A stretch of DNA of 40,144 nt from an uncultured Lachnospiraceae bacterium. GTDB lineage: Bacteria; Bacillota; Clostridia; Lachnospirales; Lachnospiraceae. Below the pieces are notes generated by a model. It worked only from the letters and a program-made list of their open reading frames with translations, did not search any database and was not told the origin of the DNA. The translations under genes and the position numbers were made by a program. The stretch is from assembly GCA_947588845.1 (NCBI GenBank), contig CANQAR010000028.1, forward strand, positions 1-40,144. The letters run 5' to 3'. Position 1 is the stretch's first letter. Every line of letters starts with the position of its first letter. Positions 4,872 to 30,239 of this stretch are shown piece after piece.

Positions 4872-5119
4872 ATGATGCCAGGGTCGAAAGGTCATGCGTT
4901 CCATGTTCACATGGAAAAGCATGACACTGAGACCCAAAAAACACCGAAAAGGAGCCATTTTTCATGGAAAAATGTGCGGATTTGAGGTGTTTCAGGGTGC
5001 TGAACGTCCAGTGGACGTTCGCTCAGCACCGACCGGAGTGAAACGGAGATTCGTGAGCACGAAGTGCGGAGAAATCCGTGGCATCATGGGGGCAAAATTC
5101 CTTTTGACCCCAGCATCAT
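4872..5119. repeat. ITR-bounded multi-hairpin intergenic element (copy A)
   Basis: The ends are inverted: ATGATGCCAGGGTC at 4872 and GACCCCAGCATCAT ending at 5119. Inside are four hairpins. GTCATGC and TTCCATG (4891-4905) pair with CATGGAA and GCATGAC (4910-4925) inside an outer GGGTC/GACCC pair. CATTTTTC pairs with GAAAAATG near 4960-4978. GGTGCTGA plus ACGTCCA (4996-5010) pairs with TGGACGT plus TCAGCACC (5012-5030). The last is a GATT..AATC module with an inner GCAC-GAA-GTGC hairpin (5045-5077). No credible ORF is present. It fills the space between the sigma and Rrf2 genes and shares ends or modules with the elements near 6.3, 20.7 and 30.1 kb. Confidence 0.75.
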
Positions 5120-5376
5120 ATCATAGCAAAAAAGGTCCTCATAATGAACATCGTATTTTTTACGCTTTGGTTACGCTTTCTCTTCAAATTTGCTGTTCAA
5201 ATACCTCAAAAAAGTCTTTTGTTTTTTTATCGTTTGCGCTATGATTTATAAGGATAAATTTGCTAACTTGTAATATTGGCTGCAGGACGCTGCCTGACTG
5301 TAAGAGTGGAATCAAAAGATCTGCAGCAGACAGAACACCTGCCAGCGGGAAAGGCAGAAAGGATGCGGGATTGATT

Positions 5377-5838
5377 ATGAGACTGAATACGAAATGTTCG
5401 ATCGCGGTACACGCGCTCATTCTGACGGCAGAATTTGAATCCGACTGCAAGATCACCAGCGAGCTTCTCGCAAAAAGCATCGGCTGCAATTCCTCCGCGG
5501 TCCGCAGCATCCTAAACGCGCTGCAGAAAGCGGGAATCATCTCCATCGTAAGAGGCATCGGCGGCGCTCATCTCGAAAAATCTCCCGCCAAAGTGACACT
5601 GTGGGACATTTATTCCGCGCTTGAACCGGACGGCCTCTCCCACATGATCGGAATCCACCCGAATCCGTCGCAGCTCTGCCCGGTCGGACATAATATAGAA
5701 ACCGTTCTATCCGAGCCTTACGGCAGAATTGCCGGTGCGGTGAAAGATACCATGCAGGAAATTACCCTGCAGCAGATGCTGGACCGGTATCACCAGCTGG
5801 TGTCCGATTCCGAAACTAAAACGGAAACGACACAATAA
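5377..5838 (+). CDS. Rrf2-family transcriptional regulator
   Basis: This protein of 153 aa has the N-terminal winged helix of Rrf2 (MRLNTKCSIAVHALILTAEF, then ITSELLAKSIGCNSSAVRSILNALQKAGII and the wing RGIGGAHLEK). Its C-terminal half has a single Cys in LCPVGHNIETVL. It lacks the three-cysteine cluster of IscR or NsrR, so iron-sulfur sensing is doubtful. The start is uncertain: AAAGGA at 5358 sits 7 bases before a TTG at 5371, while the ATG at 5377 gives the family N-terminus. It stands alone, so its target is unknown; paralogues often repress oxidoreductases. Confidence 0.85.
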   Translation: MRLNTKCSIAVHALILTAEFESDCKITSELLAKSIGCNSSAVRSILNALQKAGIISIVRGIGGAHLEKSPAKVTLWDIYSALEPDGLSHMIGIHPNPSQLCPVGHNIETVLSEPYGRIAGAVKDTMQEITLQQMLDRYHQLVSDSETKTETTQ

Positions 5839-6033
5839 ACCAGACCTGGCAGGAACAGCAGCGCACAGTAAACTCCCATGCCAGACATACCGGCACCTCT
5901 ATAAATGAAAGGGCGTTTATTTTTAGCCTCACTTTATCCCGGAAGGCTTTGCACATTCTGCACAAAAATCACCTCGTATAATGATATATATGCGCAATAA
6001 CACGAAATTTCACAAATAATTACATAAACATTA

Positions 6034-6062
6034 TTGAAAACTTTTGTAAGTAATGCTATAAT
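6034..6062 (+). promoter_or_regulatory. Promoter of the beta-glucoside operon
   Basis: TTGAAA (6034-6039) and TATAAT (6057-6062) are 17 bases apart. The transcript would start near 6069, just upstream of the RAT antiterminator site. Confidence 0.8.
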
Positions 6063-6092
6063 GACTCCAGTTAGCAAGAATGAAGAGTACGT

Positions 6093-6175
6093 GGGTGTTA
6101 CTGGTCAGCAGGCAAAACCATGTTTATAAAGTTCCGCACAGGGGATGTGGGGGATTTTGTAAGCGTGGTTTTTTT
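6093..6175 (+). promoter_or_regulatory. LicT/BglG-type RAT antiterminator and overlapping terminator
   Basis: Positions 6093-6119 match the LicT RAT pattern (GGGTGTTACT, then GCAGGCAAAACC). The 3' end AAAACCA (6113-6119) can instead pair with TGGTTTT followed by T's at 6166-6175, giving the competing terminator with a long, internally structured loop. When LicT binds the RAT the terminator cannot form and licT, the PTS gene and bglA are read. The RAT is about 345 bases upstream of licT, unusually far, because a structured repeat lies in between. Confidence 0.85.
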
Positions 6176-6251
6176 ACTGTGAAAGCCCCGGACGGCGGCC
6201 ATCGGCGGGCATGCTCGCATGCATCGGCGAATGGACATCGGACGGGCAAGA

Positions 6252-6394
6252 CGGTATGAGCAATACAGTGACACGAACGAATGTGAGTGGCACGGTGCCG
6301 CGTGCCAGTGACACGCGTTTGGCACCGACCGAAACGAAGTGTAGATTGCGAATACCGGCGGCGATGACGAAAGTGCTGAAAGCACGGAGTCATC
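6252..6394. repeat. Modular structured intergenic element (copy C)
   Basis: The outer stem CGGTAT (6252-6257) pairs with ATACCG (6352-6357), then a GAG/CGA internal loop and CAAT/ATTG. Inside are CAC-GAAC..TGA-GTG (6272-6289) and a hairpin of GGTGCC plus GCGTG (6294-6304) with CACGC plus GGCACC (6312-6326). Downstream is GATGAC..GTCATC around an inner GTGCT-GAA-AGCAC hairpin (6363-6394). The same shapes occur in copies A and D with different paired bases. It lies within the leader of the beta-glucoside operon after the terminator; further hairpin-rich sequence with no gene runs from 6185. Confidence 0.7.
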
Positions 6395-6463
6395 TGCTTT
6401 CATTCATGGCGGTACCCGCAGAGCGTGAAAATTTAGTTTCATTCGGAAGGGAGCAGGTTCTCC

Positions 6464-7300
6464 ATGAAGATCCAGAAAGTTCTGAATAATAATATTGTGG
6501 TTTCTCGGGATGAGAAGCAGCGGGAGATCCTCCTCCTCGGACGGGGAATCGGTTTCGGGAAGCGTCCTGGCATGGACGTAGATGAAAGCAGGATTGAGAA
6601 AAAGTTTATCGGCTTCACGGAAAGCCGGTATGAAGAGCAGCTGGCGGAGCTGCTGGAACGGATCCCGACAGAACATTTCGCAGTCGGCCTGCTGATTGCG
6701 GAGCATGTGCGCGAACACATCCAGAAGCCGCTCAACGAAAATCTGGTTCTGATGATCTCCGACCATATCAGCTTCGCGATCGAGCGCCGGAAGAAAGGGC
6801 TGGAACTGCAGAACGCGCTTCTATGGGAAACGAAGAAGTTCTATCCGGATGAATACCGGCTGGGTCTGGACGCGCTGGATATCATCGAGAAGGAAACCGG
6901 CGTTCGCCTGGCAGAGGACGAGGCTGGATTTATCGCTCTGCATATCGTGAACGCCCAGTATGGGACAGACAGCGGGATTTCCCGCAAAATGATTCAGATG
7001 ATTCAGGACATCATCAACATTGTCCGCTATACATACAGCATGGAGCTGGACGACAGTTCTCTCGACTACATCCGCTTCGTGACGCACCTGAAATTTTTCC
7101 TGCAGCGGATCTTTACGGATAACTGCTATGAGAAAGACAGCGGCCTCTTCCAGATGGTGTCAAAGCTGTACCCGCAGGCGCTGAACTGCAGCATGAAGAT
7201 CCGCGAATATATCAGGAAAAAGCTGGACTACGTGTTCGGCGAGGAAGAACTCGGCTATCTGACAATCCATATCGAGAAACTGACACGAAAGCGAATTTAA
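6464..7300 (+). CDS. licT: BglG/LicT-family transcription antiterminator
   Basis: This protein of 278 aa has an N-terminal RNA-binding CAT domain (about 1-56, MKIQKVLNNNIVVSRDEKQR) and two PTS regulation domains. PRD1 has His in MISDHISFAI and FIALHIVNA; PRD2 has His in IRFVTHLKFF and YLTIHIEKL, the four phosphorylation sites of the family. It binds the RAT in its own leader and prevents termination when beta-glucoside is being transported; EII phosphorylates PRD1 to switch it off and HPr phosphorylates PRD2 to activate it. It is followed by the EIIBCA and 6-phospho-beta-glucosidase genes. The symbol rests on family and locus structure. Confidence 0.92.
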   Translation: MKIQKVLNNNIVVSRDEKQREILLLGRGIGFGKRPGMDVDESRIEKKFIGFTESRYEEQLAELLERIPTEHFAVGLLIAEHVREHIQKPLNENLVLMISDHISFAIERRKKGLELQNALLWETKKFYPDEYRLGLDALDIIEKETGVRLAEDEAGFIALHIVNAQYGTDSGISRKMIQMIQDIINIVRYTYSMELDDSSLDYIRFVTHLKFFLQRIFTDNCYEKDSGLFQMVSKLYPQALNCSMKIREYIRKKLDYVFGEEELGYLTIHIEKLTRKRI

Positions 7301-7390
7301 ATCGAGCAGGAGGCGTTTTTCCTCTCCTGCTCGCCAGCGCGGCCCGCATGCTGCGTCAGCAGCTAATCTCCATGTGCGGGCCTGTGCATA
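7301..7390 (+). repeat. ATCGAG double-hairpin 3' element (copy 1)
   Basis: It starts directly after the licT stop. GAGCAGGAG (7304-7312) pairs perfectly with CTCCTGCTC (7324-7332) around a T-rich loop. GCGC plus GGCCCGCA (7337-7348) pairs with TGCGGGCC plus GTGC (7375-7387). Copy 2 (17344) has the same two hairpins with different bases in the stems, and copy 3 (31940) has the first hairpin only. It could act as a partial terminator or processing site between licT and the PTS gene. Confidence 0.7.
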
Positions 7391-7400
7391 AAATACGCAG

Positions 7401-7434
7401 TTAAATATCCTGCTGCAGACAGCGGGATATTTAA
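7401..7434 (+). repeat. 15-bp stem-loop between licT and the PTS gene
   Basis: TTAAATATCC (7401-7410) pairs with GGATATTTAA (7425-7434), then a T-G pair and GCTG/CAGC with the loop CAGA. Smaller hairpins follow (CCGGAA/TTCCGG and CCGGCAG/CTGCCGG between 7470 and 7525). There is no T-run and no second RAT. mRNA processing or stability is the likeliest use. The rest of 7301-7595 holds no gene. Confidence 0.65.
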
Positions 7435-7574
7435 TCCCCGCGGCATCCGCCGGACACACAGACATACTGCATCCCCGGAAAGAGTTTTCGTTCCGGAACC
7501 GGCAGCGGCATCTGCCGGATACATGCAGGCATGGCCGCCTGGCTCACTGCCCGCGGAAATAAATAATACTATAA

Positions 7575-10975
<3,401 letters not shown>

Positions 10976-11097
10976 CGGCTTTGCCGCCGGATACGGAAAA
11001 CCAGAAACCTGTCAGATGAGGAATCGAAGATGTCTGCTGCGCAGACCCGAATTTCACCCGCGAGCGGGTTTCAAATTAAAATTTACCTTCTCAGAAA

Positions 11098-11142
11098 GAA
11101 GGATTGTCGGCATGGCACAATGCCGCACAGTCCTTCTTTTTT
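11098..11142 (+). terminator. Intrinsic terminator of the beta-glucoside operon
   Basis: GAAGGA, TTGT and GGCAT (from 11098) pair with ATGCC, ACAG and TCCTTC, followed by a run of six T's. The stem is about 15 bp with small mismatches and the loop is GGCACA. Confidence 0.9.
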
Positions 11143-11235
11143 ATCGTGAAAGCTCAGTGCCTCTGCGCTGAGCGCGCGAAAATGCGGCCGCGGAAGCGGC
11201 AGATTCCCAGTCTCTATGCAGAAACGCTGATTTCC

Positions 11236-12120
11236 CTATTGCTGTCCTCTGACATACGCACTGAACGCCTCAACAAACTTCTCCGCCGCTTTCGTCTGTG
11301 TCTGGTACTTCTTCCAGACAAGCGTCATGCCTACCGTCTGCTCCGGCTCAAAGGGAATGAAGACAAGATTGCGGCCTTCCGTGCTGATCAGCTTGTCCAG
11401 CGTCAGCACATAGCCCATGTTCTCTTCCGCCAGGATCGCGGCGTTGTTGATGAGATTATACGTCGCTATTACATTCAGCTCCGAGATTGGTTTTCCGATC
11501 CATTTCATCATCCGCGCGTTGTTCGGTATCTGCCTGGATATGATCAGAGGCTTGTCCCACAGATCCTCCGCAGTAATGGCCGTCTTTCCGGCAAGAGGCG
11601 CATCCCTGCGCATCAGCACACCCCACTTATCATAAAACGGAAGTTCCAGGTATTCATATTTTGACTGGTCGATCGCGCCGAGCAGCAGACAAAAGTCAAA
11701 AAGTCCTTTGTCCAGCCGCTCCACAAGATCGGTGCTGTCCCCGCTGACCACATGGAACTTTATTCCGCTGTACTCCTGCTGCAGCTGCGTGACGACACGA
11801 GCAACATGGCGGATTGCGTCGGTTTCCCCTGCGCCGACATAGATATCTCCGGCAATCATATCGTCCGGGTTTTTCATCTCCGCCTCCGTCCGGCGGGCAA
11901 GACTGACGATCTCCTCCGCCCTCTTTCGGAAATAAAGTCCGTCCTCGGTCAGCGTTATCTTTCTCTTCCCGCGGATAAAAAGAATCTTCCCAAACTCATC
12001 TTCCAGATCTTTCAGTTGCCTTGAGAGCGTCGGCTGCGTCAGGTGCAGGTATTCCGCCGCTCTGGAGATGTTCTGCTCGCGGGCGACTGCAAGAAAATAT
12101 TCCAGCACGCGAAGTTCCAT
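11236..12120 (-). CDS. LysR-family regulator (module 1)
   Basis: This protein of 294 aa has an N-terminal winged HTH (LEYFLAVAREQNISRAAEYLHLTQPTLSRQLKDLEDEFG, residues 4-42) and a periplasmic-binding-like effector domain from about residue 90. I use the ATG at 12120, 8 bases after AAGG; the ATG two codons upstream is too close. It is divergent from the DUF3737 gene, the usual LysR arrangement, so it probably controls that gene and the small helical protein after it. It closely resembles the second LysR protein in this window (22886-23761) along its length, for example in the shared MELR start, AVARE, TQPxLSRQLK and RKITLTE blocks. Confidence 0.92.
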   Translation of the reverse strand: MELRVLEYFLAVAREQNISRAAEYLHLTQPTLSRQLKDLEDEFGKILFIRGKRKITLTEDGLYFRKRAEEIVSLARRTEAEMKNPDDMIAGDIYVGAGETDAIRHVARVVTQLQQEYSGIKFHVVSGDSTDLVERLDKGLFDFCLLLGAIDQSKYEYLELPFYDKWGVLMRRDAPLAGKTAITAEDLWDKPLIISRQIPNNARMMKWIGKPISELNVIATYNLINNAAILAEENMGYVLTLDKLISTEGRNLVFIPFEPEQTVGMTLVWKKYQTQTKAAEKFVEAFSAYVRGQQ

Positions 12121-12350
12121 TTTCATCACCTTTCTTTCTGTCAAATTTCTTTTTTTCATATTCGCCATGTTTCATGCAATGTGAATTCCCATGTATCTTC
12201 CGTGATTCCGGTCTTCTCCATGAACATTACCCGAACATTTTCCCACCATCCAATACTTCACAATCCCTCTCTCAAATTTCACTCAACTTAATTCAGTATA
12301 GCAGTTTATATCATACATAACAAGCATAATAATCCATTTATCATAAGCAT

Positions 12351-12379
12351 TTGTCTTTTCTGTACTGCTGTCATATAAT
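12351..12379 (+). promoter_or_regulatory. Promoter of the DUF3737 gene
   Basis: TTGTCT (12351-12356) and TATAAT (12374-12379) are 17 bases apart. The region just upstream is AT-rich with the short palindrome TTATCATAA and repeats of AAGCAT, where the divergent LysR protein may bind. Otherwise 12121-12409 holds only the two promoters. Confidence 0.75.
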
Positions 12380-12409
12380 AATGGCGAACATTAAAGGAGG
12401 GGTTTTTTC

Positions 12410-13503: not shown

Positions 13504-13640
13504 CGGATACTTTCTCTTAATAATAGTCTGAAGGACGTCGTGTACTATATTTAATTTGATGGTACCGTCGTCCTTTTCATTTAACAGTTATCCTCTTTAT
13601 TTCCTTTCCAATTTTCTACAATCGCAAATCAAAGATTTCG

Positions 13641-13669
13641 TTGACAAAACAATATTTTATAATTATACT
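13641..13669 (+). promoter_or_regulatory. Promoter of brnT, predicting a leaderless mRNA
   Basis: TTGACA (13641-13646) and TATACT (13664-13669) are 17 bases apart. The expected transcription start, 7 bases after the -10 element, is the A of the brnT ATG at 13676. Confidence 0.7.
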
Positions 13670-18822: not shown

Positions 18823-20535
18823 TCACTCCTCCAATACTGCTCTGCATCGTTTCTTGTAACAGGCAATACCATACTTTTTCACCTTCTCAATTCCATCATC
18901 ATATAACTTCTCATCGTACCGCCGGTCCCTGATCTGTTTCAGCGCCTGCTGCACGCCTTTCTCCATATCGCCGTCGCGGGCATATTTCACCTCGATTATG
19001 ATCCCCAGTCCGTCATCCTCCGTCTCAATCAGGATATCTCCATAGCCGTCTCCGGTTTCATAGTTGCTGGTCACATACCAGTTCCCCTTAAAGCTCAGAA
19101 TCCCCAGCAAAATCCCATGATAAAAATTCTCCTTCAGGCTCTGCTTCACGAATGTATCCCGGATACTGACTGTCTTCCTGAGATACTGACCAAGCAGTTC
19201 TTCCACCTTCCGGGCGTTCCCTTCCTTAAGCGCGCCACAGAATTCCCTGACCATCGCGCCGTCCTGCGACACCTGTTCTTTGAACAGAGTCAGAATCTGT
19301 GTCTTAAAGATATCACGGATCTCCATGTTCGGAATCGTCAGCGGAACCACCCGCCCTTCCGGAACGCCGCGCTTTGTCAGATAGCCTGTCATATACAGCA
19401 GACTCCACAGATTCTCAACGGAACTGTACATTTCGCGATAAGTAAGTTCCGGACGGATTTCTTTTTGGACCGTCTCTCCCGCCGTCAGCCGCTCCAGTTC
19501 TCTGGCTGTCACACTCACATCCAGACGCCGCACAAATTCCCGCACCGCATCGTTTCCGCTGGAATTCGCCCAAAAGTTTTCCGGCTTCGCCTTCGGATTT
19601 CTCAAAAGACGTCTCACATAGCTGACTACATCCCATGGACAATATATCTCCGAGCTTCCAAAGCAGTACCCGTCGTACCAGGCCCTCATCGCCTCATAAT
19701 GGCTGTCAAGTTCATAATACTTCAAAAGCTCTCTCACTTCTCTGTCTGTGAATCCAAAGCAGTCCGAAAACTCCTCGTCTGCCACCGTCATCACACACAG
19801 ATTATTCATTCCCGTGAAAATGCTTTCTCTGGAAATGCGCAGGCATCCAGTCAGCACTGCGAATGCCAGACTGTCATTCGTTTTCAACGCCTGACTGAAC
19901 ATACTCCGGACCAGCCGCACCATCTGATCATAGTATCCTCCATAAAACGCTTTCTGAAGGGGAACATCGTACTCATCAATCAGCAGGATTACTTTCTGGC
20001 CATAGTGCTTTTCCAGAAGGAAGGACAGCAGCCGGAGCCCGTTTGTCATCACATCATCCGACATGGGAAACTGCGGCTCGCCGGGTTTCCCCACATGAAC
20101 CAGCTGGGCATACGCCGCTTTTTCTCTCTCTTCCAGCCTTTCGCTTTTCAGCAGAAAACTGTACTTAAGTGCCTCAAATCCGATAACACTGGCAAGCATC
20201 CTGCGCGCTCCCTCATAATCGTCTGCACTGATATCTTTCAAAGATATGGAAATCACCGGAAATTTTCCCATATATTCTCTACAGATTTCTGTCTCTTTCA
20301 AAATCGCAAACCCATCAAAAACAGACGGATCCCTCCCTGCCTCGAAAAAACATCTCAGCATACTCATGTTCAAGGATTTTCCAAAACGCCGCGGTCTGGT
20401 GAAAAGATTCACCTTTGCCCGGTTTCGGATCAATTCCGCAATCATTCCCGTCTTGTCTATGAAATAAAAGTTCTCCCTTATCAGCTGTTCAAAATTCTCT
20501 ATCCCAACAGGGAGCATTTTCTTTTCAGAAATCAC
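18823..20535 (-). CDS. AAA-ATPase-like protein with PD-(D/E)XK nuclease domain (1)
   Basis: This protein of about 570 aa has an N-terminal AAA-ATPase-like domain beginning LPVGIENFEQLIRENFYFID, with Walker A RPRRFGKSLNMS and Walker B VILLIDEYDVPL. A C-terminal PD-(D/E)XK nuclease-like domain has D and E-x-K in GYGDILIETEDDG and IIIEVKYA. The pairing matches the gut-bacterial PF09820-PF08011 family, which is abundant and of unknown function. The start is a GTG at 20535, 8 bases after GGAGG; the GTG at 20544 lies inside that site. A close relative is at 34624-36312. The nuclease residues look intact. Confidence 0.88.
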   Translation of the reverse strand: MISEKKMLPVGIENFEQLIRENFYFIDKTGMIAELIRNRAKVNLFTRPRRFGKSLNMSMLRCFFEAGRDPSVFDGFAILKETEICREYMGKFPVISISLKDISADDYEGARRMLASVIGFEALKYSFLLKSERLEEREKAAYAQLVHVGKPGEPQFPMSDDVMTNGLRLLSFLLEKHYGQKVILLIDEYDVPLQKAFYGGYYDQMVRLVRSMFSQALKTNDSLAFAVLTGCLRISRESIFTGMNNLCVMTVADEEFSDCFGFTDREVRELLKYYELDSHYEAMRAWYDGYCFGSSEIYCPWDVVSYVRRLLRNPKAKPENFWANSSGNDAVREFVRRLDVSVTARELERLTAGETVQKEIRPELTYREMYSSVENLWSLLYMTGYLTKRGVPEGRVVPLTIPNMEIRDIFKTQILTLFKEQVSQDGAMVREFCGALKEGNARKVEELLGQYLRKTVSIRDTFVKQSLKENFYHGILLGILSFKGNWYVTSNYETGDGYGDILIETEDDGLGIIIEVKYARDGDMEKGVQQALKQIRDRRYDEKLYDDGIEKVKKYGIACYKKRCRAVLEE

Positions 20536-20603
20536 CTGATCCACCTCCGTTTTGGCTCTGTTATTAAAAGTCCGGATAACTGTTTCTATACATTTTCAAT
20601 GAA

Positions 20604-20789
20604 ATGATGCCAGGGTCAAAAGTCCGAATCCACGACATGCTTGCATGTCGGTGGGTGAGTGACTTTATGACCCGCCCCAAGATGAGGAAAAAGTGGGGCA
20701 GGGGCCCCATGATTTCCGAATCCTGGGCTGGATTGTGGGAGTGCGAAGCACGAAACAATCCGTCTGGCATCTTTTGACCCCAACATCAT
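20604..20789. repeat. ITR-bounded structured intergenic element (copy B)
   Basis: The ends ATGATGCCAGGGTCAAAAG (from 20604) and CTTTTGACCCCAACATCAT (to 20789) are inverted and nearly match those of copy A. Inside are GACATGC/GCATGTC near 20634-20649 and the recurrent module GGATTGT..ACAATCC around GTGC-GAA-GCAC (20730-20761). The sequence between differs from copy A, so copies share ends and modules rather than overall identity. No ORF is supported. Confidence 0.72.
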
Positions 20790-20804
20790 GAAATGATGTT
20801 GGGG
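20778..20804. repeat. 12-bp hairpin at the right end of copy B
   Basis: CCCCAACATCAT (20778-20789) and ATGATGTTGGGG (20793-20804) form a perfect stem around GAA. It means that the right end of copy B is followed by an inverted third copy of the terminal sequence, as if two element ends lie head to head. The remaining sequence to 20930 is AT-rich with no gene. Confidence 0.7.
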
Positions 20805-22502: not shown

Positions 22503-22526
22503 ATCTGAGTCCTCCTGATTTCATTT

Positions 22527-22754: not shown

Positions 22755-22829
22755 TTTCATTCCTCCTCTTTTCTTTCATTATAGGAGCAAAGGAGAGTAA
22801 TATCAAATATATATATTAAATGGGTTTTT

Positions 22830-22844
22830 ATACTTGAAAAGTAT
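22830..22844. promoter_or_regulatory. Candidate LysR box (T-N11-A)
   Basis: ATACTT (22830-22835) and AAGTAT (22839-22844) form an inverted repeat around GAA and fit T-N11-A, in the 131-base space between the divergent LysR and small-protein genes. Upstream is an AT-rich stretch with alternating TA (22807-22817). Confidence 0.55.
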
Positions 22845-22885
22845 GGATTGATGTGTTATCTTGTTTGGAAAAAAGGAGGTGTCCT

Positions 22886-23761
22886 ATGGAACTGCGTGAT
22901 CTTCAGTATTTTCTGGCGGTAGCGCGTGAGGAGAGTATTACCAGAGCGGCCGAAGCGCTGCACATGACACAGCCGCCGCTCTCAAGACAATTAAAGAATC
23001 TGGAAGAAGAACTTGGCGTGCAGCTTTTTATCCGCGGCAGCCGTAAGATCACCCTGACCGAGCAGGGAATGCTGCTGCGAAGACGCGCGGAAGAGATGGT
23101 GGAACTGATTGAGCGCACAAGAGAGGAAATCAGCGCGGATCAGAAGTGCGTCAACGGTGATATCTATATCGGCTGCGGCGAGAGCGAAGGGATGCGGATC
23201 ATTGCCCGGACGATCCGCACGCTGCAGCAAAAGTATCCGCAGATCCGCTGCCACCTGGTCAGCGGCAACTATGAAGACCTGACCGATCGTCTGGACAGCG
23301 GCCTGTTTGACTTCTGCGTCCTGCTGCAGCCCTGGGACTATACAAAATATGACAATATCCGGCTTCCGTTTCTGGAACGGTGGGGTGTGCTGATGCTCCG
23401 GGACAGCCCTCTGGCCGCAAAAAAGGAAATCCGGGCCGAGGATCTGGCCGGACTGCCTCTGATTGCCTCCCGGCAGGCGATCGCCCACAATGAGCTTTCG
23501 GGGTGGCTGGGAAGAAGCGGCGAGACACTGAATATCACGGCTACCTACAATCTTCTGCACAATGCGGTACTGCTGGTAGAAGAACAGGTGGGATACCTTC
23601 TCTGCCTGGATCGTATCGTACCGCTGACAGACTCCGGCAGGCTTTGTTTTCGCCCGCTTGAGCCCCAGGTCACGGCAGGGCTGGACATTGTCTGGAAAAA
23701 ATACCGGATGTTCTCGCAGGCGTCCCAGCTGTTTTTGGATGAGCTGCTCGCTTCCATCTGA
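22886..23761 (+). CDS. LysR-family regulator (module 2)
   Basis: This protein of 291 aa has the same layout as the LysR protein at 11236-12120 and is clearly its paralogue: HTH LQYFLAVAREESITRAAEALHMTQPPLSRQLKNLEEELG at residues 4-42, then the effector-binding domain with GDIYIGCGESEGMRIIARTI. The ATG at 22886 follows AAGGAGGTG. It is divergent from the small helical protein and exported aldo-keto reductase genes and probably activates them in response to a small ligand. No downstream partner is co-directional; a wrecked SGNH gene follows on the other strand. Confidence 0.92.
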   Translation: MELRDLQYFLAVAREESITRAAEALHMTQPPLSRQLKNLEEELGVQLFIRGSRKITLTEQGMLLRRRAEEMVELIERTREEISADQKCVNGDIYIGCGESEGMRIIARTIRTLQQKYPQIRCHLVSGNYEDLTDRLDSGLFDFCVLLQPWDYTKYDNIRLPFLERWGVLMLRDSPLAAKKEIRAEDLAGLPLIASRQAIAHNELSGWLGRSGETLNITATYNLLHNAVLLVEEQVGYLLCLDRIVPLTDSGRLCFRPLEPQVTAGLDIVWKKYRMFSQASQLFLDELLASI

Positions 23762-23798
23762 TATACGATGCACAAGACCCGCAAATGAATCCTGAATA

Positions 23799-24053
23799 TT
23801 AAAGATAACGTTTCATCCAGATCATATCCCAAGCGTCCTCCCCCACATCCCGGCTCCACTTTTTCCCTGCTATTAAGGTGTCCTACCGGAAAAATCCAAG
23901 CCATAATCGTATCTTTATTCCGCAATCATTTCCACCGCGGCGCTGCTCTTATAAGCGTCGCGGCCAACATCCACAGCGAATCTGCACGTATCCCCTTCCA
24001 TACCGAATGATAAATGATATTTCAGAATCGGTACACGGTATTTCAGCATCCTG
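23799..24053 (-). pseudogene. Degraded copy of the SGNH-like gene
   Basis: Read on the minus strand this stretch keeps separate pieces of the protein encoded at 32170-33309. They are an upstream piece RMLKYRVPILKYH, a middle piece SSAAVEMIAE (followed by a stop) and RYDYGL, and the C-terminus AGKKWSRDVGEDAWDMIWMK before the stop at 23799. The segments between are deleted and stops interrupt the frame, so it is not functional. The DNA of the last 75 bases is close to identical to that at 32168-32245, so the duplication is fairly recent. Confidence 0.85.
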
Positions 24054-24127
24054 CCTCTCATTCTGACAGGTTTTACATCCCTCCTCTATAAACGTAAGTT
24101 TATATCTGACTCAGACTGTCGGATGCC

Positions 24128-24166
24128 AGTGCTGTCATCCACTCACTTCGTTCGTGGGACAGTACT
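24128..24166. repeat. Short structured element at the ROK gene end (copy E)
   Basis: AGTGCTGTC (24128-24136) pairs with GACAGTACT (24158-24166) with one G-T pair. Inside, read on the minus strand, is CCAC-GAAC-GAAG-TGA-GTGG (24139-24157), the same GAA/TGA loop hairpin found in copies C and D. It overlaps the ROK stop codon. Upstream, ATAAAC-GTAA-GTTTAT near 24088-24103 is another small hairpin. Confidence 0.5.
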
Positions 24167-25307
24167 AGGCTCCTGTACCAGGACCGATATCATCCAGAAA
24201 ACGCTGGATATACGGGAGAGCCGCGCCGATGTTGATATTATGAGAGGGCATCTTACTAATCAGAATGTAATCATTGCCGAGCTCAAACGGACAGTTGCGC
24301 CGGATTTCCTCGTAGATATACCGGATATCTTCCTCCGTAAAATACTGGGCAAGATAACCGCCGAGGATAAAGTCCACGTCAACGACCAGGCGGAGATTTC
24401 CAATCAGTCTGGAAAGGTTTTTTAAATAATACTGCCAGCGTTCTGTCTGCCCGGCCGCGCCACTGCGCACAGCATCAAAAAAAGCATCCGGATCATCATT
24501 TCCAAGCAGCGCGTCCATGGAGCAGATCGTTTCCGCGCAGCCGCGGCAGCCGCAATAGCAAAGCTTCCCATCAGGATCCATTGGAATATGCTCAAAAGTT
24601 GCCGTATGCCCATGTTTACCGAACATAATCTTTCTCTCTGAAATCAGAGAACCTCCCAGGTGACGGCTCAGCGAAAGATATAAGGCGGATGTCAGTTCAG
24701 GGGAACTCCAAAGTTCTGAGAGCGCCGCACTGTCAGAATCATGAATAAAATGGCATGGATAAGGCAGGCGGCCGGTGAATACATCAATTTTCAGTCCGCT
24801 GCAGTTGAGAATCTTTCCATATGTCACAGTATTACCGTCGGCGGAAACCAGCCCCTGCATGGCAAAACCGATTCCGAGGATTCTGCTGACCGTGATTTCC
24901 AGGGAGGAAATAAATTTCAGGATATCCTCACTGATTTTCTGATAGTATGCCGCCTGATTTTCATATTGTATCTCTCTTTCCACGCAGTTAATTTTCCTGC
25001 CATAGAGATCGACCGCAATGATTTTTACTGTTTCCAGCATAATCTCTACGCCAATAGCAATGCGGAAGTCCGGAGTAATGGAGTAGGCGGCCGCCTTGCG
25101 CCCGATCTGATCAGATTCCAGCTGACCGTTTTTTAAAATCAGACCATCTTCCTCCAGTTCTATGAGGTTGGTGGCCACAGTGGGACGGCTCAAACGCAAA
25201 GCATAGGCGATATCCTGCTGAGATACCCTTCTCTCTTTATAAATATAATCATAGATAAGCTGCCGGTTTGTTTTCTTAATCTGTCCCGGCGTAATTCGTT
25301 TTGGCAT
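24165..25307 (-). CDS. ROK-family transcriptional repressor (XylR-like)
   Basis: This protein of 380 aa has an N-terminal winged HTH (RRVSQQDIAYALRLSRPTVATNLIELEEDG, residues 25-55) and a C-terminal ROK domain with the zinc-binding motif C-x-C-G-x2-G-C in LCYCGCRGCAE. ROK repressors release DNA on binding a sugar or sugar phosphate. The ATG at 25307 follows AGGAG; two in-frame ATGs further upstream lack a site. It is divergent from the SDR/ABC/kinase operon, with TTGTAAA-type operators between, so it is the likely repressor of that operon. Confidence 0.9.
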   Translation of the reverse strand: MPKRITPGQIKKTNRQLIYDYIYKERRVSQQDIAYALRLSRPTVATNLIELEEDGLILKNGQLESDQIGRKAAAYSITPDFRIAIGVEIMLETVKIIAVDLYGRKINCVEREIQYENQAAYYQKISEDILKFISSLEITVSRILGIGFAMQGLVSADGNTVTYGKILNCSGLKIDVFTGRLPYPCHFIHDSDSAALSELWSSPELTSALYLSLSRHLGGSLISERKIMFGKHGHTATFEHIPMDPDGKLCYCGCRGCAETICSMDALLGNDDPDAFFDAVRSGAAGQTERWQYYLKNLSRLIGNLRLVVDVDFILGGYLAQYFTEEDIRYIYEEIRRNCPFELGNDYILISKMPSHNINIGAALPYIQRFLDDIGPGTGA

Positions 25308-25393
25308 GTTCTGTCTCCTGCTGATATTCAAGATTTTATTTTCCATCAATTCATTCTATCAAAACCGCTATAACGACACCATATACATTTTGC

Positions 25394-25405
25394 ACAAAAT
25401 TTTGT
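25394..25405. promoter_or_regulatory. Candidate ROK operator 1
   Basis: ACAAAATTTTGT is a perfect 12-bp palindrome, followed by AAAATAATTTGG. It shares the TTGTAAAAT core with the sites at 25471 and 25497 and lies in the divergent promoter region, 26 bases upstream of the -35 element. Confidence 0.6.
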
Positions 25406-25430
25406 AAAATAATTTGGCAAAATGTGTGGA

Positions 25431-25459
25431 TTGACAGATATATTACTCGGTGCTATTAT
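25431..25459 (+). promoter_or_regulatory. Promoter of the SDR/ABC/kinase operon
   Basis: TTGACA (25431-25436) and TATTAT (25454-25459) are 17 bases apart. The start site near 25466 is immediately followed by the TTGTAAA operator. Confidence 0.8.
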
Positions 25460-25470
25460 GTAATAGAAAA

Positions 25471-25504
25471 TTGTAAAATAAATTTACAAAATAAACTTGT
25501 AAAA
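25471..25504. promoter_or_regulatory. Candidate ROK operator 2 with extra half-site
   Basis: TTGTAAA (25471-25477) and TTTACAA (25483-25489) are perfect inverted half-sites 5 bases apart, and TTGTAAAA recurs at 25497-25504. Position just downstream of the transcription start fits repression by the divergent ROK protein. Confidence 0.65.
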
Positions 25505-25554
25505 TTATTTTTCATGAAATTACCCACATCAACAAATCAAAGGAGGAAAAAATT

Positions 25555-26331
25555 ATGGGTATCATCGAGAGAATGAAACTGGACGGTAAAAAAGGCTTTG
25601 TCACCGGAGGAGCACGCGGCATTGGCAAGTGTACCGCTGCTGCTTTCGCTGAAGCCGGCGCGGATGTCGCCATCGTGGATCTGGATCTGGCAACGGCACA
25701 GAATACCGCCGAAGAAATTGCCGCGGCTACCGGCCGCAAGGTCATCGCCGTCGGCTGCGATGTCACCAGTGAAGCACAGGTACAGGCCATGGTAGACTCA
25801 GTAGTCAAGGAGCTTGGAGGCCTGAACTTCTGCCATGCCAACGCGGGCATCTGCATCAATGCTCCTGCGGACAGCATGACCTACGCACAGTGGAAAAAGA
25901 ACATCGACGTCAATCTCAACAGCATGTTCCTGACCGATACCATCGCGGGCCGGTATATGCTGGCCAACGGCGGCGGCTCAATCATCAACACAGCTTCCAT
26001 GTCCGCCCATATCGTCAATGTCCCTCAGCCCCAGTGCGCTTATAATGCTTCAAAAGCCGGCGTTATTCAGCTGACCAAATCCCTGGCTATTGAGTGGGCC
26101 AAACGAGGCGTTCGTGTCAACAGCATCAGCCCCGGGTATATCGGTACCGATCTGACACTCTCTTCTCCTGATCTGCAGCCCCTGATCGCCCGGTGGAATG
26201 CCATGGCTCCCATGGGACGGCTCGGCATGCCCGAAGAACTGGCGTCCATCTGTGTGTATCTGGCGGGAGATACTTCCAGCTTTACTACCGGTTCCGATTT
26301 TATTCTGGACGGCGCTTTTACCTGTTTTTAA
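25555..26331 (+). CDS. SDR oxidoreductase, polyol dehydrogenase type
   Basis: This protein of 258 aa is a classical short-chain dehydrogenase. The cofactor loop is TGGARGIG, Asp in VDLDL suggests NAD preference, then HANAG, the catalytic Ser in NTASMSA and Y-x3-K in YNASK, with the C-terminal GSDFILDGAFTCF. It resembles D-arabinitol, xylitol or sorbitol-type dehydrogenases; with an FGGY kinase and a sugar ABC importer in the same operon, conversion of a polyol to a ketose before phosphorylation is likely. AAAGGAGG precedes the ATG. It is the first gene after the ROK-controlled promoter. Confidence 0.88.
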   Translation: MGIIERMKLDGKKGFVTGGARGIGKCTAAAFAEAGADVAIVDLDLATAQNTAEEIAAATGRKVIAVGCDVTSEAQVQAMVDSVVKELGGLNFCHANAGICINAPADSMTYAQWKKNIDVNLNSMFLTDTIAGRYMLANGGGSIINTASMSAHIVNVPQPQCAYNASKAGVIQLTKSLAIEWAKRGVRVNSISPGYIGTDLTLSSPDLQPLIARWNAMAPMGRLGMPEELASICVYLAGDTSSFTTGSDFILDGAFTCF

Positions 26332-26389
26332 TCCATCTGTATTCTGCGCTTTCATACAGCGCAAATCTTAAACGAAAGGAGAAACCTCT

Positions 26390-27490
26390 ATGAAAAAACG
26401 TATCTTAGCGCTTCTTGGTGTCACTGTCCTGCTGCTGTCCGCCCTGACCGGCTGCGTCAATACCGGTGAGGACAAAGTATCTCCTTCCGGAACTCCTGCC
26501 GCTTCTGAATCTTCCCAAAATGCAGACGCCAGCGATACCGCCAGCACTGAAGGCATCCAGGCGGATGCCGCTTTCTACGCCGCTGCTGACCTGTCTGTCC
26601 TGGATGGAAAGAAGATCGGCGTCACCATCCAGTCCCTGCAGAACGCCTACTGGGCCGGTGTTATGACCGCTCTGGAGGAGAGTCTGACCGCCAGCGGCGC
26701 CAACGTCACCATCGTGGCCTGTGACGACAGCTCTGCCACCCAGATCGGCCAGATCGAGAACTTCGTCTCCTCCGGCTGTGATCTCATCATGGTGCATCCT
26801 TCCGATGCTGCCGCTGTGGAGGACGCCTGCGCTCAGGCCCGCAGCCAGGGCATCAAGGTCATGTGCTGGGATGATCCCATGTCCAACACCGACGGCAACT
26901 GGGTTCTGAACAACACTGACCTGGGCATTGCCATCGGCAAGGCTGCCGGGGCTTTCATCAACGAGCATTACAGTGAAGACAATCAGGCCCAGATCGCCAT
27001 GATCAACTATCCCCAGACTATGATTCTGCTGGAACGTGAAGAAGGAATCCTGCAGGGTCTGGAACAGACCTGCCCCGGCAAGTATGAGATCGTCTCCAGT
27101 CAGGCCGGCCTGGATGCCATTCAGGCTCAGACCGCCATGGAAACCATTCTCCAGCGCTACCCTGACTGCAAGATTGTTACCGGTATCGGCTCAGGCGCCA
27201 TGATCGGCTCTGACGAGGCTCTGCAGATTTCTACCGGAGGCAGCATCCCTGAGGATATGGGCGTGTTCACCGCCGACGTGACCAGGCAGCAGCTGGAACA
27301 TCTGAAGGACGACACTTATCCTGCCCGCGCCGCCATTGGCTTTGAAGGTTCTGACGAAGATACAGGCAACGCCTGTGCAGCCATGTTCGCCCTGATTCTC
27401 AGCGATTCCCTGGAAAGCCAGAATGTGTTCCGTCAGCTGACTCAGATTGATGCCGACAATGTGGATGCCATCATGGCCGGTATGAAATAA
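26390..27490 (+). CDS. ABC sugar transporter, substrate-binding lipoprotein
   Basis: This protein of 366 aa has a lipoprotein signal (hydrophobic VTVLLLSALTGC, lipidated Cys22), then an Ala/Ser-rich linker and a periplasmic-binding protein type 1 domain (Peripla_BP_4, RbsB-like). That domain begins KKIGVTIQSLQNAYWAGVMTAL and includes IQAQTAMETILQRYPDCKIV. It captures a pentose or polyol outside the membrane for the ATPase and permease that follow. AAAGGAG precedes the ATG. A strong hairpin after the stop may protect this mRNA segment and raise binding-protein levels over the rest. Confidence 0.92.
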   Translation: MKKRILALLGVTVLLLSALTGCVNTGEDKVSPSGTPAASESSQNADASDTASTEGIQADAAFYAAADLSVLDGKKIGVTIQSLQNAYWAGVMTALEESLTASGANVTIVACDDSSATQIGQIENFVSSGCDLIMVHPSDAAAVEDACAQARSQGIKVMCWDDPMSNTDGNWVLNNTDLGIAIGKAAGAFINEHYSEDNQAQIAMINYPQTMILLEREEGILQGLEQTCPGKYEIVSSQAGLDAIQAQTAMETILQRYPDCKIVTGIGSGAMIGSDEALQISTGGSIPEDMGVFTADVTRQQLEHLKDDTYPARAAIGFEGSDEDTGNACAAMFALILSDSLESQNVFRQLTQIDADNVDAIMAGMK

Positions 27491-27505
27491 CCTGACACAA
27501 ACATT

Positions 27506-27549
27506 TTTCATGTGACGTTCTGTCCCGGAAGACAGAACGCCGCATGAAA
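27506..27549 (+). promoter_or_regulatory. Intercistronic hairpin after the binding-protein gene
   Basis: TTTCATG (27506-27512) pairs with CATGAAA (27543-27549). After a 3x3 internal loop, CGTTCTGTC (27516-27524) pairs with GACAGAACG (27531-27539) around CCGGAA. No T-run follows. Such hairpins commonly stabilise the upstream mRNA or reduce read-through to downstream transporter genes. Confidence 0.75.
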
Positions 27550-27573
27550 CCCCAAACATTCAGGAGGTACCAT

Positions 27574-29088
27574 ATGAATGAAGATTATGTTCTGGAACTG
27601 GAACACATCCGAAAAGAATACCCCGGCGTTGTGGCGCTGAAGGACGTAACGCTTCAGCTCCGGCGCGGCGAGGTCCTGGGCCTCATCGGTGAGAACGGCG
27701 CCGGAAAATCTACCCTGATTAAGTGCTGTTCCGGCGCGGTCATACCCACCTCGGGCAAGATCAGGATCAATGGGAAAGAATTTGACCGCATGACACCTCA
27801 GCTGGCGGCAGAAAACGGCATTGCCATCATCTATCAGGAATTCAACAACGTGGGCGAACTGTCCGCCGCCGAAAATCTGTTTCTGGGCCGTCCCATCCGA
27901 AAAGGCATCATGATCGACCGGAAAACCATGGAAGACGAGGCAGCCAAAGCCTTTGACCAGCTGAAAATCAGAATCAATCCCCGGGAACTGGTGAAAAACC
28001 TCTCCGTCGGTTATCAGCAGATGATTGAAATCGCCAAAGCTATCCAGCAGAACGCGCAGGTACTCATCATGGATGAACCCAGCGCTCCGCTGACTACCAA
28101 TGAAGTGGATAACATGTTTGCCGTGGTGGAACTTCTGCGGCAGAAAGGCGTATCCATCATTTATATCTCCCACCGCCTGGAGGAGATTTTCCGCCTGTCT
28201 GACCGCATTGAGGTTATCCGCGACGGAGAGTACGTAGATACCCTCATCACCCCCAAAGCCACTGTGGACGAACTCATCAGGATGATGGTAGGCCGGGAGA
28301 TGACCCAGAAGTATCCCCCGCGCAGAGACTGTATCGACCACAGCAAGGTGGTTCTGGAACTTAAGGATGTCTGCGGCAACGGCGACAAAAATATAACCAT
28401 GAAAATCCACGCCGGAGAGGTTCTGGGCCTTGGCGGCCTGGTGGGCGCGGGCCGCACGGAACTGGCTGAAGTTATCTTTGGTTCCAGGCCCAAGGAATCC
28501 GGCACAATCCTGCTCAACGGCAAGGAAATCAACCCCAGATCTCCCCGCGAAGCCATCGATCTGGGCATCGCCCTGGTGCCGGAGGACCGGAAGCGTCACG
28601 GCGCGCTGCTGACCAACTCCATCAAAAACAACATCAACATGCCCATCTATGAGCGTATTTCCAAAGTCAGCATTATTGACAGCGGCACGGAGAAACGGAC
28701 GGCAGAAAAATACAGGGAAGAAATCCAGATCAAATGCCCCACCATCAACCAGCTGGTCAAAAACCTCTCCGGCGGCAACCAGCAGAAGGTCATTCTGGGC
28801 AAATGGCTGGCCGCCGATTCCCAGCTTATTATCTTTGACGAACCCACCCGAGGCATCGATGTGGGCGCAAAATACGAAATCTATAAGCTCATCAACGATC
28901 TCGTGGAGTCCGGCCGCAGCGTCCTGATGATCTCCTCGGAAATGGAGGAACTGATCGGTATGTCCGACCGCATCATTGTCCTGGCCGAGCATGAGATCAC
29001 CGGAGAACTGCAAAAAGAAGCGTTTAACGCCGACACCGTCATGGCCTACGCCTCTGCGGTGGCAGATAAAAAGGAGGTTCCCGCATGA
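27574..29088 (+). CDS. ABC sugar transporter ATPase (RbsA/XylG type)
   Basis: This protein of 504 aa has two fused ATPase domains. The first has Walker A GENGAGKSTL, signature LSVGYQQM and Walker B VLIMDEPSAPL. The second has a degenerate Walker A GLVGAGRTEL, signature LSGGNQQKV and Walker B LIIFDEPTRGID, as usual for CUT2 transporters. The start at 27574 follows CAGGAGG. It powers uptake through the permease encoded next, whose ATG overlaps its stop by 4 bases. Confidence 0.94.
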   Translation: MNEDYVLELEHIRKEYPGVVALKDVTLQLRRGEVLGLIGENGAGKSTLIKCCSGAVIPTSGKIRINGKEFDRMTPQLAAENGIAIIYQEFNNVGELSAAENLFLGRPIRKGIMIDRKTMEDEAAKAFDQLKIRINPRELVKNLSVGYQQMIEIAKAIQQNAQVLIMDEPSAPLTTNEVDNMFAVVELLRQKGVSIIYISHRLEEIFRLSDRIEVIRDGEYVDTLITPKATVDELIRMMVGREMTQKYPPRRDCIDHSKVVLELKDVCGNGDKNITMKIHAGEVLGLGGLVGAGRTELAEVIFGSRPKESGTILLNGKEINPRSPREAIDLGIALVPEDRKRHGALLTNSIKNNINMPIYERISKVSIIDSGTEKRTAEKYREEIQIKCPTINQLVKNLSGGNQQKVILGKWLAADSQLIIFDEPTRGIDVGAKYEIYKLINDLVESGRSVLMISSEMEELIGMSDRIIVLAEHEITGELQKEAFNADTVMAYASAVADKKEVPA

Positions 29089-30038
29089 AAACACTCAATG
29101 TAAAAAATATTGTAAAATCCAATGCAATCTGGTTTGTATTCCTGGCAGAAGTCATTATCTTTGCCATTGCCAGCGGAGGTACCTTTATCTCTGCCAACAA
29201 TATCATCAATATTGCCCGCCAGGTCTCCTATTACGGCATCGCCTCCATTGGCATGACCTTTGTGATCCTGATTGCCGGTATTGATCTGTCCATCGGCTCT
29301 ATCATCACCATCGTCAATGTGGTCTGCGCCTATCTGATGGTCAACGCAGGCCTGAACATGTGGCTTGCAGTGGCTGTCTCCCTGATTCTGGCCATGGCCA
29401 TCGGCATCCTCAACGGAGCCATGATCGCCTCCGTCGGTATACCGGCCCTGATCGCCACCTTCGCCTCCCAGACCATTTTTGAAGGCGTGGCGTACCTGAT
29501 CTCCGGCGGCCGTCCCATCGCCGGATACGATTCCAGCTTCGGCATCTTCGGCCGCTGGTCCCTGGGTCCGATACCCATCTGCGCCATTATCATGATCGCC
29601 TGTTTTGCCATCGGCAGTTTTATTCTCAACAAATCCTTCTTTGGACGCTACTTCTATGCGATCGGCGGCAATGAAGAAGCCGCGGAGCTCTCCGGTATCC
29701 GCGTCAACCGTATCAAGTACCTGATCTACGCTCTGTCCGGTTTCTTTGCCGGTCTGGCCGGCATCGTCCTCCTGTCCCGCTCCGGTTCTGCTCAGAGTAC
29801 CGTCGGCAAAGGTCTGGAATTCGATGTTATCACCTGTGTGGTACTTGGCGGCGTTTCCGTCAACGGCGGCGTCGGCCGTATGTCCGGTGTCGTAGCCGGT
29901 GTATTGATTATCGGCTCCCTGACTAACGGCATGATTCTGATGGATATCAGCGATTACACTCAGATGGTGGTCAAGGGACTGGTTCTGGCCGTAGCTGTCG
30001 GCATTGACTGTATGTCCAAGAAACGTCAGATAAACTAA
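29085..30038 (+). CDS. ABC sugar transporter permease (RbsC type)
   Basis: This protein of 317 aa is very hydrophobic, with roughly eight to ten membrane helices and the family motif GIDLSIGSIITIVNVV and later RYFYAIGGNEEAAELSGI, the coupling region of BPD_transp_2 permeases. It forms the channel for the CUT2 importer with the two preceding proteins. Codon usage in this operon is rich in GCC, CTG and ATC, unlike the GCG/GGC-rich beta-glucoside operon, hinting at a different origin. Confidence 0.94.
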   Translation: MKTLNVKNIVKSNAIWFVFLAEVIIFAIASGGTFISANNIINIARQVSYYGIASIGMTFVILIAGIDLSIGSIITIVNVVCAYLMVNAGLNMWLAVAVSLILAMAIGILNGAMIASVGIPALIATFASQTIFEGVAYLISGGRPIAGYDSSFGIFGRWSLGPIPICAIIMIACFAIGSFILNKSFFGRYFYAIGGNEEAAELSGIRVNRIKYLIYALSGFFAGLAGIVLLSRSGSAQSTVGKGLEFDVITCVVLGGVSVNGGVGRMSGVVAGVLIIGSLTNGMILMDISDYTQMVVKGLVLAVAVGIDCMSKKRQIN

Positions 30039-30105
30039 GGCCAATACGTCCTTTTCCAAACTTTCATGCCGGGCATACCCAGCAACACCATGAATATAAG
30101 TCCAC

Positions 30106-30239
30106 GGATTGCTTCGTGCTTTCGCACTCCCGCAATCCTACAGGTATTCGCAATTCGCATCGTTCACTTTGTTCACGCTGCTGTATTGCTCATACCTGTT
30201 GTCGTCTCCTGTGCATAGTCGGTCTGGCAAGTAAACTTG
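30106..30239. repeat. Modular structured element inside the sugar operon (copy D)
   Basis: GGATTGC (30106-30112) pairs with GCAATCC (30132-30138) around GTGC-TTTC-GCAC. CAGGTAT (30141-30147) pairs with ATACCTG (30192-30198), then a TCG/CTC loop, CAAT/ATTG and inside CGT-TCA-C-TTT-G-TTC-ACG (30161-30177). GGCAAGT-AA-ACTTGCC follows (30224-30239). On the minus strand these are the same modules as in copy C. It occupies the 253-base space between permease and kinase genes, in an otherwise tight operon; no ORF is supported there. Confidence 0.72.

What the first reader, a model, noticed from the sequence alone, without database searches (positions are those of the whole stretch)
5045..30138. Recurrent hairpin module with covarying stems at four loci
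The module is an outer stem, an internal loop with GA-rich strands, a 4-5 bp inner stem and a GAA/GAAA cap. It occurs at 5045-5077, 6363-6394, 20730-20761 and 30106-30138 (the last on the minus strand). Outer stems read GGATTGC/GCAATCC, GGATTGT/ACAATCC, GATGAC/GTCATC and an imperfect GATT/AATC version. Inner stems read GTGC/GCAC or the swapped GCAC/GTGC. Changing bases with kept pairing and kept loop purines argues for a conserved folded RNA, perhaps a protein-binding motif like tandem sheared G-A pairs.
Basis: seen in the sequence. Interest (0 to 1): 0.75.

Follow-up and report, generated by a model that had tools for sequence, protein, structure and literature searches.

The report
Mobile repeats carrying Clostridiales-1 RNA
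The four look-alike hairpins are the last arm of a known but unexplained gut-bacterial RNA family, and the sequence indicates that these RNAs are the body of small jumping DNA elements, one kind of which probably borrows the transposase of a resident insertion sequence.

Summary
Each hairpin is the 3' arm (P4) of an Rfam RF01699 Clostridiales-1 RNA (60-124 bits, cut-off 48), listed in 2010 as probably RNA, probably not cis-regulatory, no switch. The genome holds at least 60 copies; P4 covaries strongly.

The copies look like short non-autonomous mobile elements of two kinds around one folded core. Type A (4873-5118, 20605-20788) has inverted ends and 5-bp target duplications: 25 exact of 51 usable pairs, shuffled mean 2.0. 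Its ends resemble those of a resident IS1182-like element, the likely mobiliser. Type B (6177-6435; 30057-30274 minus) begins after TTTA in 25 of 39 copies; its enzyme is unknown. Relative G046 has an empty TTTA site for the copy at 6177 and lacks the copy at 4873.

A second repeat, a 52-nt hairpin with 124 matches in the genome (15 partial), strong covariation and no G-U pairs, is nested in 12 of 60 copies and reached no Rfam cut-off.

Whether the fold acts as RNA or as single-stranded DNA is open.

The parts
4873..5118 (+). Type A mobile element, 246 bp: left inverted repeat TGATGCCAGGGTCGAAAGG, folded core (RF01699 hit 4873-5086), right end GACCCCAGCATCA
   Evidence: absent at the orthologous place in relative G046
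4868..4872 (.). Left target duplication CATCA (right copy TATCA, one mismatch)
5119..5123 (.). Right target duplication TATCA
   Evidence: G046 reads AAATATCATAAC here
4996..5049 (+). Nested hairpin module (model R1, 65.7 bits), in the 5' strand of the P4 outer stem
5045..5077 (+).
6177..6435 (+). Type B mobile element, 259 bp from after the left TTTA to the end of the right TTTA (RF01699 hit 6180-6402), behind a run of seven T, upstream of a LicT/BglG-type antiterminator gene
   Evidence: empty TTTA site in G046
6173..6176 (.). TTTA at the left junction
6432..6435 (.). TTTA at the right junction
6294..6345 (+). Nested hairpin module (model R1, 73.3 bits), here inside P3
6363..6394 (+).
20605..20788 (+). 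Type A mobile element, 184 bp (RF01699 hit 20605-20772, 124.3 bits)
20600..20604 (.). Left target duplication TGAAA (exact)
20789..20793 (.). Right target duplication TGAAA (exact)
20730..20761 (+).
30057..30274 (-). Type B mobile element on the minus strand (RF01699 hit 30097-30269); left flank TTTA at 30275-30278, right end TTTG (not TTTA) at 30057-30060
30106..30138 (-).

Best explanation
Shown: many type A elements have matching inverted ends and exact 5-bp target duplications, often TNNNA, and one window copy is missing in a related genome. Shown: the same genome has an IS1182-like insertion sequence with similar ends. Inferred: its transposase, supplied in trans, moves type A, making it a MITE of that IS. 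Shown: type B elements mostly start after TTTA or another NTTA, one copy sits between two TTTA in place of one TTTA in the relative, and some lie right behind terminator-like hairpins. Inferred: a site-specific or single-strand (hairpin-recognising) recombinase moves type B; the enzyme was not found. Shown: both types carry the same core, with one strand preferred in P3 and P4. Inferred: the core is kept because the element is copied with it, through recognition of the folded strand as DNA during transposition or as RNA in read-through transcripts; it is unlikely to be a cis-regulator of one gene class.
For: Copies: 60 in the own genome, 50 over the cut-off (150 of 189 candidates scored, so a lower bound); hits in 42 of 47 genomes of the genus (own included), 10 of 13 others of the family, 2 of 38 others of the order, 0 of 14 controls. 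Type A end pattern 135 hits against 6 for the reversed control. Duplications: 25 exact of 51 usable pairs (52 formed, one without a left flank), shuffled mean 2.0, maximum 9 in 10,000 shuffles. Empty TTTA site for the B copy at 6177, and absence of the A copy at 4873, in G046. metS: occupied in G000 and G046, absent in G029. IS1182-like IS of 1867 bp with ends TGATGTCGGGGTCAAAAC and TGATGCTGGGGTCAAAAC; the second matches the right type A end at 17 of 18, the first the left type A end at 14 of 18. Type B left end: TTTA 25 of 39, NTTA 31 of 39; consensus TTTA[CT][TC]GT[GA]AAAG. Hairpin plus T-tract just upstream: 8 of 39 B, 0 of 73 A, 0 of 39 control stretches 70 nt further up. Strand: G-T 18 against A-C 2 in P3 and P4 cells. 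By rough gene of 60 copies are mostly outside genes, in both orientations to their neighbours.
Against: 22 of 74 A-like copies had no recognisable right end and were dropped from the duplication test; 26 of 51 pairs are not exact, some of them off by one base under the fixed rule. The IS1182-like element is flanked by TGTCA and TAACA, not an exact duplication, and its protein scores 124.9 bits against NCBIfam's 270 for IS1182. Type B ends are less regular than type A: 14 of 39 left ends are not TTTA; a right end was recognised in 15 of 39 (two of these look like chance matches), and only 7 of the other 13 end in TTTA. No enzyme was found for type B; the IS605-type element here has other ends and another target, and no rve-domain transposase was found. 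The A empty site carries a 13-nt indel beside the junction, and the metS site in G029 is too changed to read the junction; G006 has a different degraded B-like relic there. Flanks of the copies at 20605 and 30097 were not found closely enough to test in the 13 genomes searched. P2 columns do not align: G-T 49 and A-C 44 in them. No expression data. Differences between species show past insertion or loss, not present activity.
Confidence: 0.84

Rival explanations
1. A dispersed family of true small RNA genes, as Rfam files it, duplicated by recombination; inverted ends and repeats are by-products.
For: Strong covariation in P3 and P4; one-strand preference G-T 18 against A-C 2; GNRA-like and GAA caps (sequence reading); Rfam type 'Gene; sRNA'.
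Against: Exact target duplications, empty sites, ends like those of a resident IS, tandem and nested copies, copies in either orientation to neighbouring genes.
Confidence: 0.08
2. The fold acts only as DNA: a single strand folds and is the substrate of a hairpin-recognising enzyme, as with IS200/IS605 ends, REP elements or integron attC sites (attC recalled); RNA plays no part.
For: Few wobble pairs: 18 of 904 core (P = 0.008 against tRNA), 0 of 311 module (P = 2e-5), 12 of 217 in ten tRNAs; a favoured short left target in type B; hairpins near both ends.
Against: Type A behaves as a double-strand DDE transposon; the ratio of one-sided to two-sided changes in the core (18:155) does not differ from tRNA acceptor stems (3:36; P = 0.77); no Y1 transposase with matching ends was seen in the two such loci read here.
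Confidence: 0.35
3. Post-transcriptional or attenuator element: B copies between a leader terminator and its gene change expression of that gene.
For: Copies lie just upstream of pheS (NCBIfam over cut-off; a T-box match of 82.7 bits, below the cut-off of 93, E 2.9e-17, ends just before it), of metS (no T-box match at E up to 0.1) and of a LicT/BglG-type gene, the first behind a terminator-like hairpin and T-run.
Against: Only 8 of 39 B and 0 of 73 A copies have hairpin plus T-tract just upstream; neighbours are of many kinds and orientations; relative G029 lacks the copy at metS.
Confidence: 0.12

Closest known systems
Clostridiales-1 RNA, Rfam RF01699 (Weinberg et al. 2010, PMC2864571)
   Same: Same family by Rfam's own model, all four copies over the cut-off.
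   Different: Table 1 there gives RNA 'y' (probably), cis-reg 'n' and switch 'n' (probably not) (Background section read). In the main text the name occurs once and the word 'transposon' not at all. The supplements were not seen (no look-ups allowed), so a remark there cannot be excluded.
bcr1-bcr3 repeats of the Bacillus cereus group
   Same: Short high-copy intergenic repeats called MITE-like; [quoted passage not shown] Type B favours TTTA.
   Different: Other bacteria; no sequence comparison was made; type A has variable 5-bp duplications and an IS with similar ends.
MITEs of IS1182-like elements
   Same: Protein-free, inverted ends like those of a resident IS, target duplications.
   Different: A complex conserved fold, shared with a second element type that has other ends.
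IS200/IS605-derived PATEs and REPINs
   Same: Hairpins near the ends and a favoured short sequence at the left junction in type B; PATEs as ends-only elements in PMC7290912 (passages); REPINs from a listing.
   Different: Ends and target do not match the resident IS605-type element.

Membership tests
RF01699 Clostridiales-1 | Covariance-model score over the gathering cut-off of 48 | tested here: met
   60.2-124.3 bits
RF01699 Clostridiales-1 | Independent small RNA gene (Rfam type) | not testable with these tools
   no expression data
MITE (type A) | Short, no transposase gene, terminal inverted repeats | tested here: met
   246 and 184 bp in the window; consensus ends 16 of 19 alike
MITE (type A) | Target-site duplication | tested here: met
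   25 exact of 51 usable pairs against 2.0 expected
MITE (type A) | Autonomous IS with the same ends | tested here: met
   one IS1182-like element; ends 17 of 18 and 14 of 18 alike
MITE (type A) | Movement in trans by that transposase | not testable with these tools
   needs an excision or transposition assay
IS200/IS605 PATE (type B) | Ends and target shared with a resident Y1 element | tested here: not met
   two of eight Y1 matches were read (L177, L179): TTTAAC target and different hairpins
IS200/IS605 PATE (type B) | Fixed short left target, no variable duplication | tested here: inconclusive
   TTTA 25 of 39, NTTA 31 of 39; one resolved empty site
bcr1 (type B) | Sequence relationship to bcr1 | not tested
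   bcr1 sequence not fetched

The most novel reading that the evidence does not exclude
A folded core has been captured by two unrelated mobilisation systems (a DDE transposase with inverted repeats, and a TTTA-favouring hairpin recombinase), so the conserved unit is the fold itself, not the transposon ends. It is in turn a landing pad for a second, smaller mobile hairpin that inserts in or beside its purine loops and spreads separately, as a parasite of a parasite whose helices change only by complete base-pair swaps.
Probability: 0.33. Interest if true: 0.75.

Novelty: new variant of a known kind. Interest (0 to 1): 0.5.

Why it matters
RF01699 has stood in Rfam as an unexplained RNA gene since it was described in 2010. 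If it is the body of mobile elements, its hits should be annotated as transposable elements, and a search for a target or ligand is the wrong question; a candidate transposase makes mobility directly testable. The nested 52-nt module gives a clean case for asking how covariation arises without wobble intermediates, which bears on how far covariation can be taken as proof of RNA function.

Tried and rejected
Autonomous partner of type A: in 20 loci around type A-like ends (of 135 hits) I recognised no transposase by eye between paired ends; no rve domain in the genome; the second DDE_Tnp_1 protein (L280) is IS1634-like and shows no such ends. The DDE_Tnp_1 search then gave the IS1182-like element. 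Its protein has only distant relatives in plasmid records: 11 records, all below 60% identity.

Type B as an IS605 derivative: the resident element has other ends, so I do not file B there. The likeness to IS608 (TTAC target, AAAG guide) is recalled, not from a call.

RNAalifold on the MAFFT alignment gave only a partial consensus; pairs were then named by hand. P2 could not be tested because its columns are misaligned.

T-box leaders: I first took the leaders of pheS and metS for T-boxes by eye. Rfam gives none over the cut-off; at E up to 0.1 there is one for pheS (82.7 bits, cut-off 93) and none for metS, where the contig starts about 0.7 kb upstream of the element.

Elsewhere: viral contigs 0 matches to the exact P4 pattern; plasmids no match to the 20605 element; phages 11 unannotated records, the ten listed human-faecal and 72-80% alike, not followed. 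Literature: 'Clostridiales-1' in 4 papers and 'RF01699' in 3; only Weinberg 2010 describes the family as far as listings and passages show. 'Miniature inverted-repeat' with Lachnospiraceae (3 papers) and 'repetitive extragenic palindromic' with Lachnospiraceae (7 papers) gave no title on such elements; nor did the wider searches for these bacteria (listings only).

The gene calls are rough: at 29046-30059 they chose the strand opposite to the Pfam hit.
Full report
The four hairpins are present with the stems and loops described. Rfam's gathering search gives four matches in the window, all RF01699 Clostridiales-1, and each ends in one of the four hairpins.

IS THE FOLD REAL? From 120 loci (60 own, 60 from relatives) 98 were near full length and 47 represent them below 90% similarity. 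P4: 96.9% of 516 cells pair, 10 of 11 pairs change on both sides, 68 cells, and none of 1000 shuffles reaches any of these values. P3: 96.4% of 419 cells and 87 two-sided cells, reached by no shuffle; its number of pairs with two-sided change (7) was reached by 10 of 1000. G-T outnumbers A-C 18 to 2 in these stems, so the strand Rfam models is the one that folds. P2 did not align and is untested.

IT IS A REPEAT. The own genome has 60 matches at E up to 0.001, 50 over the cut-off. Of 98 genomes searched (own included) 54 have a match: 42 of 47 in the genus, 10 of 13 others of the family, 2 of 38 others of the order; 0 of 14 control genomes. An exact-type P4 pattern hits five contigs of three metagenome-assembled genomes, all named uncultured Lachnospiraceae bacterium. 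Some genomes carry tandem runs, such as five copies in about 750 bp.

TYPE A LOOKS LIKE A MITE. Copies with TGATGCCAGGGTC-like ends have an inverted right end (consensus ends 16 of 19 alike) often followed by a repeat of the five bases before the left end. A rule-based test formed 52 pairs from 74 A-like copies (22 had no recognisable right end; one of the 52 lacks a left flank): 25 are exact, shuffled mean 2.0, maximum 9 in 10,000. Some of the rest are off by one base because of the rule; others show no duplication. The window copy at 20605-20788 has TGAAA on both sides; that at 4873-5118 has CATCA and TATCA. Other species have changed ends, for example TGATACAAGGGAC, with a changed right end. 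The end pattern has 135 hits in the genome against 6 for the reversed control. Looking around 20 such ends gave no transposase that I recognised, but a search for DDE_Tnp_1 gave L281: a 532-aa IS1182-like transposase (NCBIfam 124.9 bits, below that model's 270 cut-off) in a 1867-bp element ending TGATGTCGGGGTCAAAAC and TGATGCTGGGGTCAAAAC. The second matches the right type A end at 17 of 18 positions, the first the left type A end at 14 of 18. Its own flanks, TGTCA and TAACA, are not an exact duplication.

TYPE B FAVOURS TTTA. 46 of the 120 loci were not classed as A by the rule (partial copies of A among them); 39 of them have a readable left end with consensus TTTA[CT][TC]GT[GA]AAAG. TTTA is exact in 25 of 39, and 31 of 39 have NTTA. 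A right end was recognised in 15 of 39, two of them probably chance; 7 of the other 13 end exactly in TTTA, and the minus-strand window copy ends in TTTG. Relative G046 has the flanks of the copy at 6177-6435 at 93% identity in one piece (13 of the 46 other genomes of the genus searched), and the alignment shows one TTTA where the window has TTTA-element-TTTA. For the A copy at 4873 it is also continuous, apart from a 13-nt indel beside the junction. At metS the element is present in G000 and G046 and absent in G029, with the junction unreadable, and G006 has a degraded B-like relic. A hairpin plus T-tract just upstream was found for 8 of 39 B copies, 0 of 73 A copies and 0 of 39 control stretches (two of the B copies, L099 and L105, look like one orthologous site). 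The copy upstream of pheS follows a T-box match that is below Rfam's cut-off. The 6177 copy follows seven T and precedes a LicT/BglG-type gene, but its upstream hairpin (-8.7 kcal/mol) just missed the threshold. The TTTA recalls the TTTAT motif linked with bcr repeats (PMC6542083, passages). No enzyme was found; the resident IS605-type element does not fit.

A SECOND REPEAT INSIDE THE FIRST. Some copies hold an extra block of about 52 nt. A pattern for its 3' half has 133 hits in the genome against 7 for the reversed control. Of 48 distinct blocks collected, 8 failed a stem test (at most 2 of 6 outer pairs broken) and were dropped, which favours pairing in the outer helix; 25 represent the other 40, and 21 of these were aligned (four odd ones dropped). 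99.0% of 314 cells pair, 12 of 15 pairs change on both sides, 55 cells, none of 500 shuffles as high; there is not one G-U pair, and accordingly the number of pair types (14) is below the shuffled mean of 17.3. A model of it finds 124 places in this genome (15 partial; 150 of 2212 candidates scored) and hits in 55 of 98 genomes. By coordinates 12 of the 60 RF01699 copies contain it, in P3 or P4, at or near a G-A step of the purine loops (sequence reading). It also sits in other repeat contexts. Rfam has no family over its cut-off for it in the window or in six further loci. I did not determine how it moves.

RNA OR DNA? Wobble pairs are 18 of 904 in the core, 0 of 311 in the module, 12 of 217 in ten tRNAs from the same loci (P = 0.008 and 2e-5). 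That leans towards folding of DNA, or a copying process that changes both arms at once, but one-sided against two-sided changes in the core do not differ from tRNA acceptor stems (18:155 and 3:36, P = 0.77), and for the module (0:55) P = 0.07. I leave it open.

VERDICT. The reading as mobile elements is well supported for type A, with a plausible mobiliser, and fairly for type B. What stays unexplained is why two element types with unlike ends share one core, and what moves type B and the nested module.

Noticed in passing
window 4996-5049 and 6294-6345; 124 places in the genome, 15 partial: 52-nt nested hairpin module with covarying helices and no G-U pairs, not in Rfam at the cut-off; spreads separately from Clostridiales-1.
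   Followed up: partly
L216, L224, L231, L236-L238, L241, L243: Another repeat: TATAGCAAACGACAAAAATATTTGCCGTTTGCTATA (with small changes) followed by the nested module and GCGCACGAATTTGAAG.
   Followed up: no
L027 and L042: L027 has a type A left end and a type B-like right end, perhaps a recombinant; L042 mixes two B subtypes.
   Followed up: no
G080:C1:1032209-1032955; G058:C3:77379-78042; G080:C1:766643-766943: Tandem runs of similar copies; in the last, one copy is followed by several repeats of the P4 hairpin alone.
   Followed up: no
L037 right flank: The B copy borders CCCACAGCGTGGATTGAAAC, which resembles a CRISPR repeat end (recalled, not searched).
   Followed up: no
window 18823-20544 minus: AAA-ATPase_like plus PDDEXK_9 protein about 60 bp from the type A copy at 20605.
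   Followed up: no
G081 and G094 (another family of the order): 44 and 60 weaker matches to the nested-module model, best E 9e-8 and 2e-8, suggesting a diverged relative there.
   Followed up: no
phage records MT837342, MT837314 and others: 11 unannotated 'Bacteriophage sp.' records hold type A-like sequence; could be bacterial DNA.
   Followed up: no
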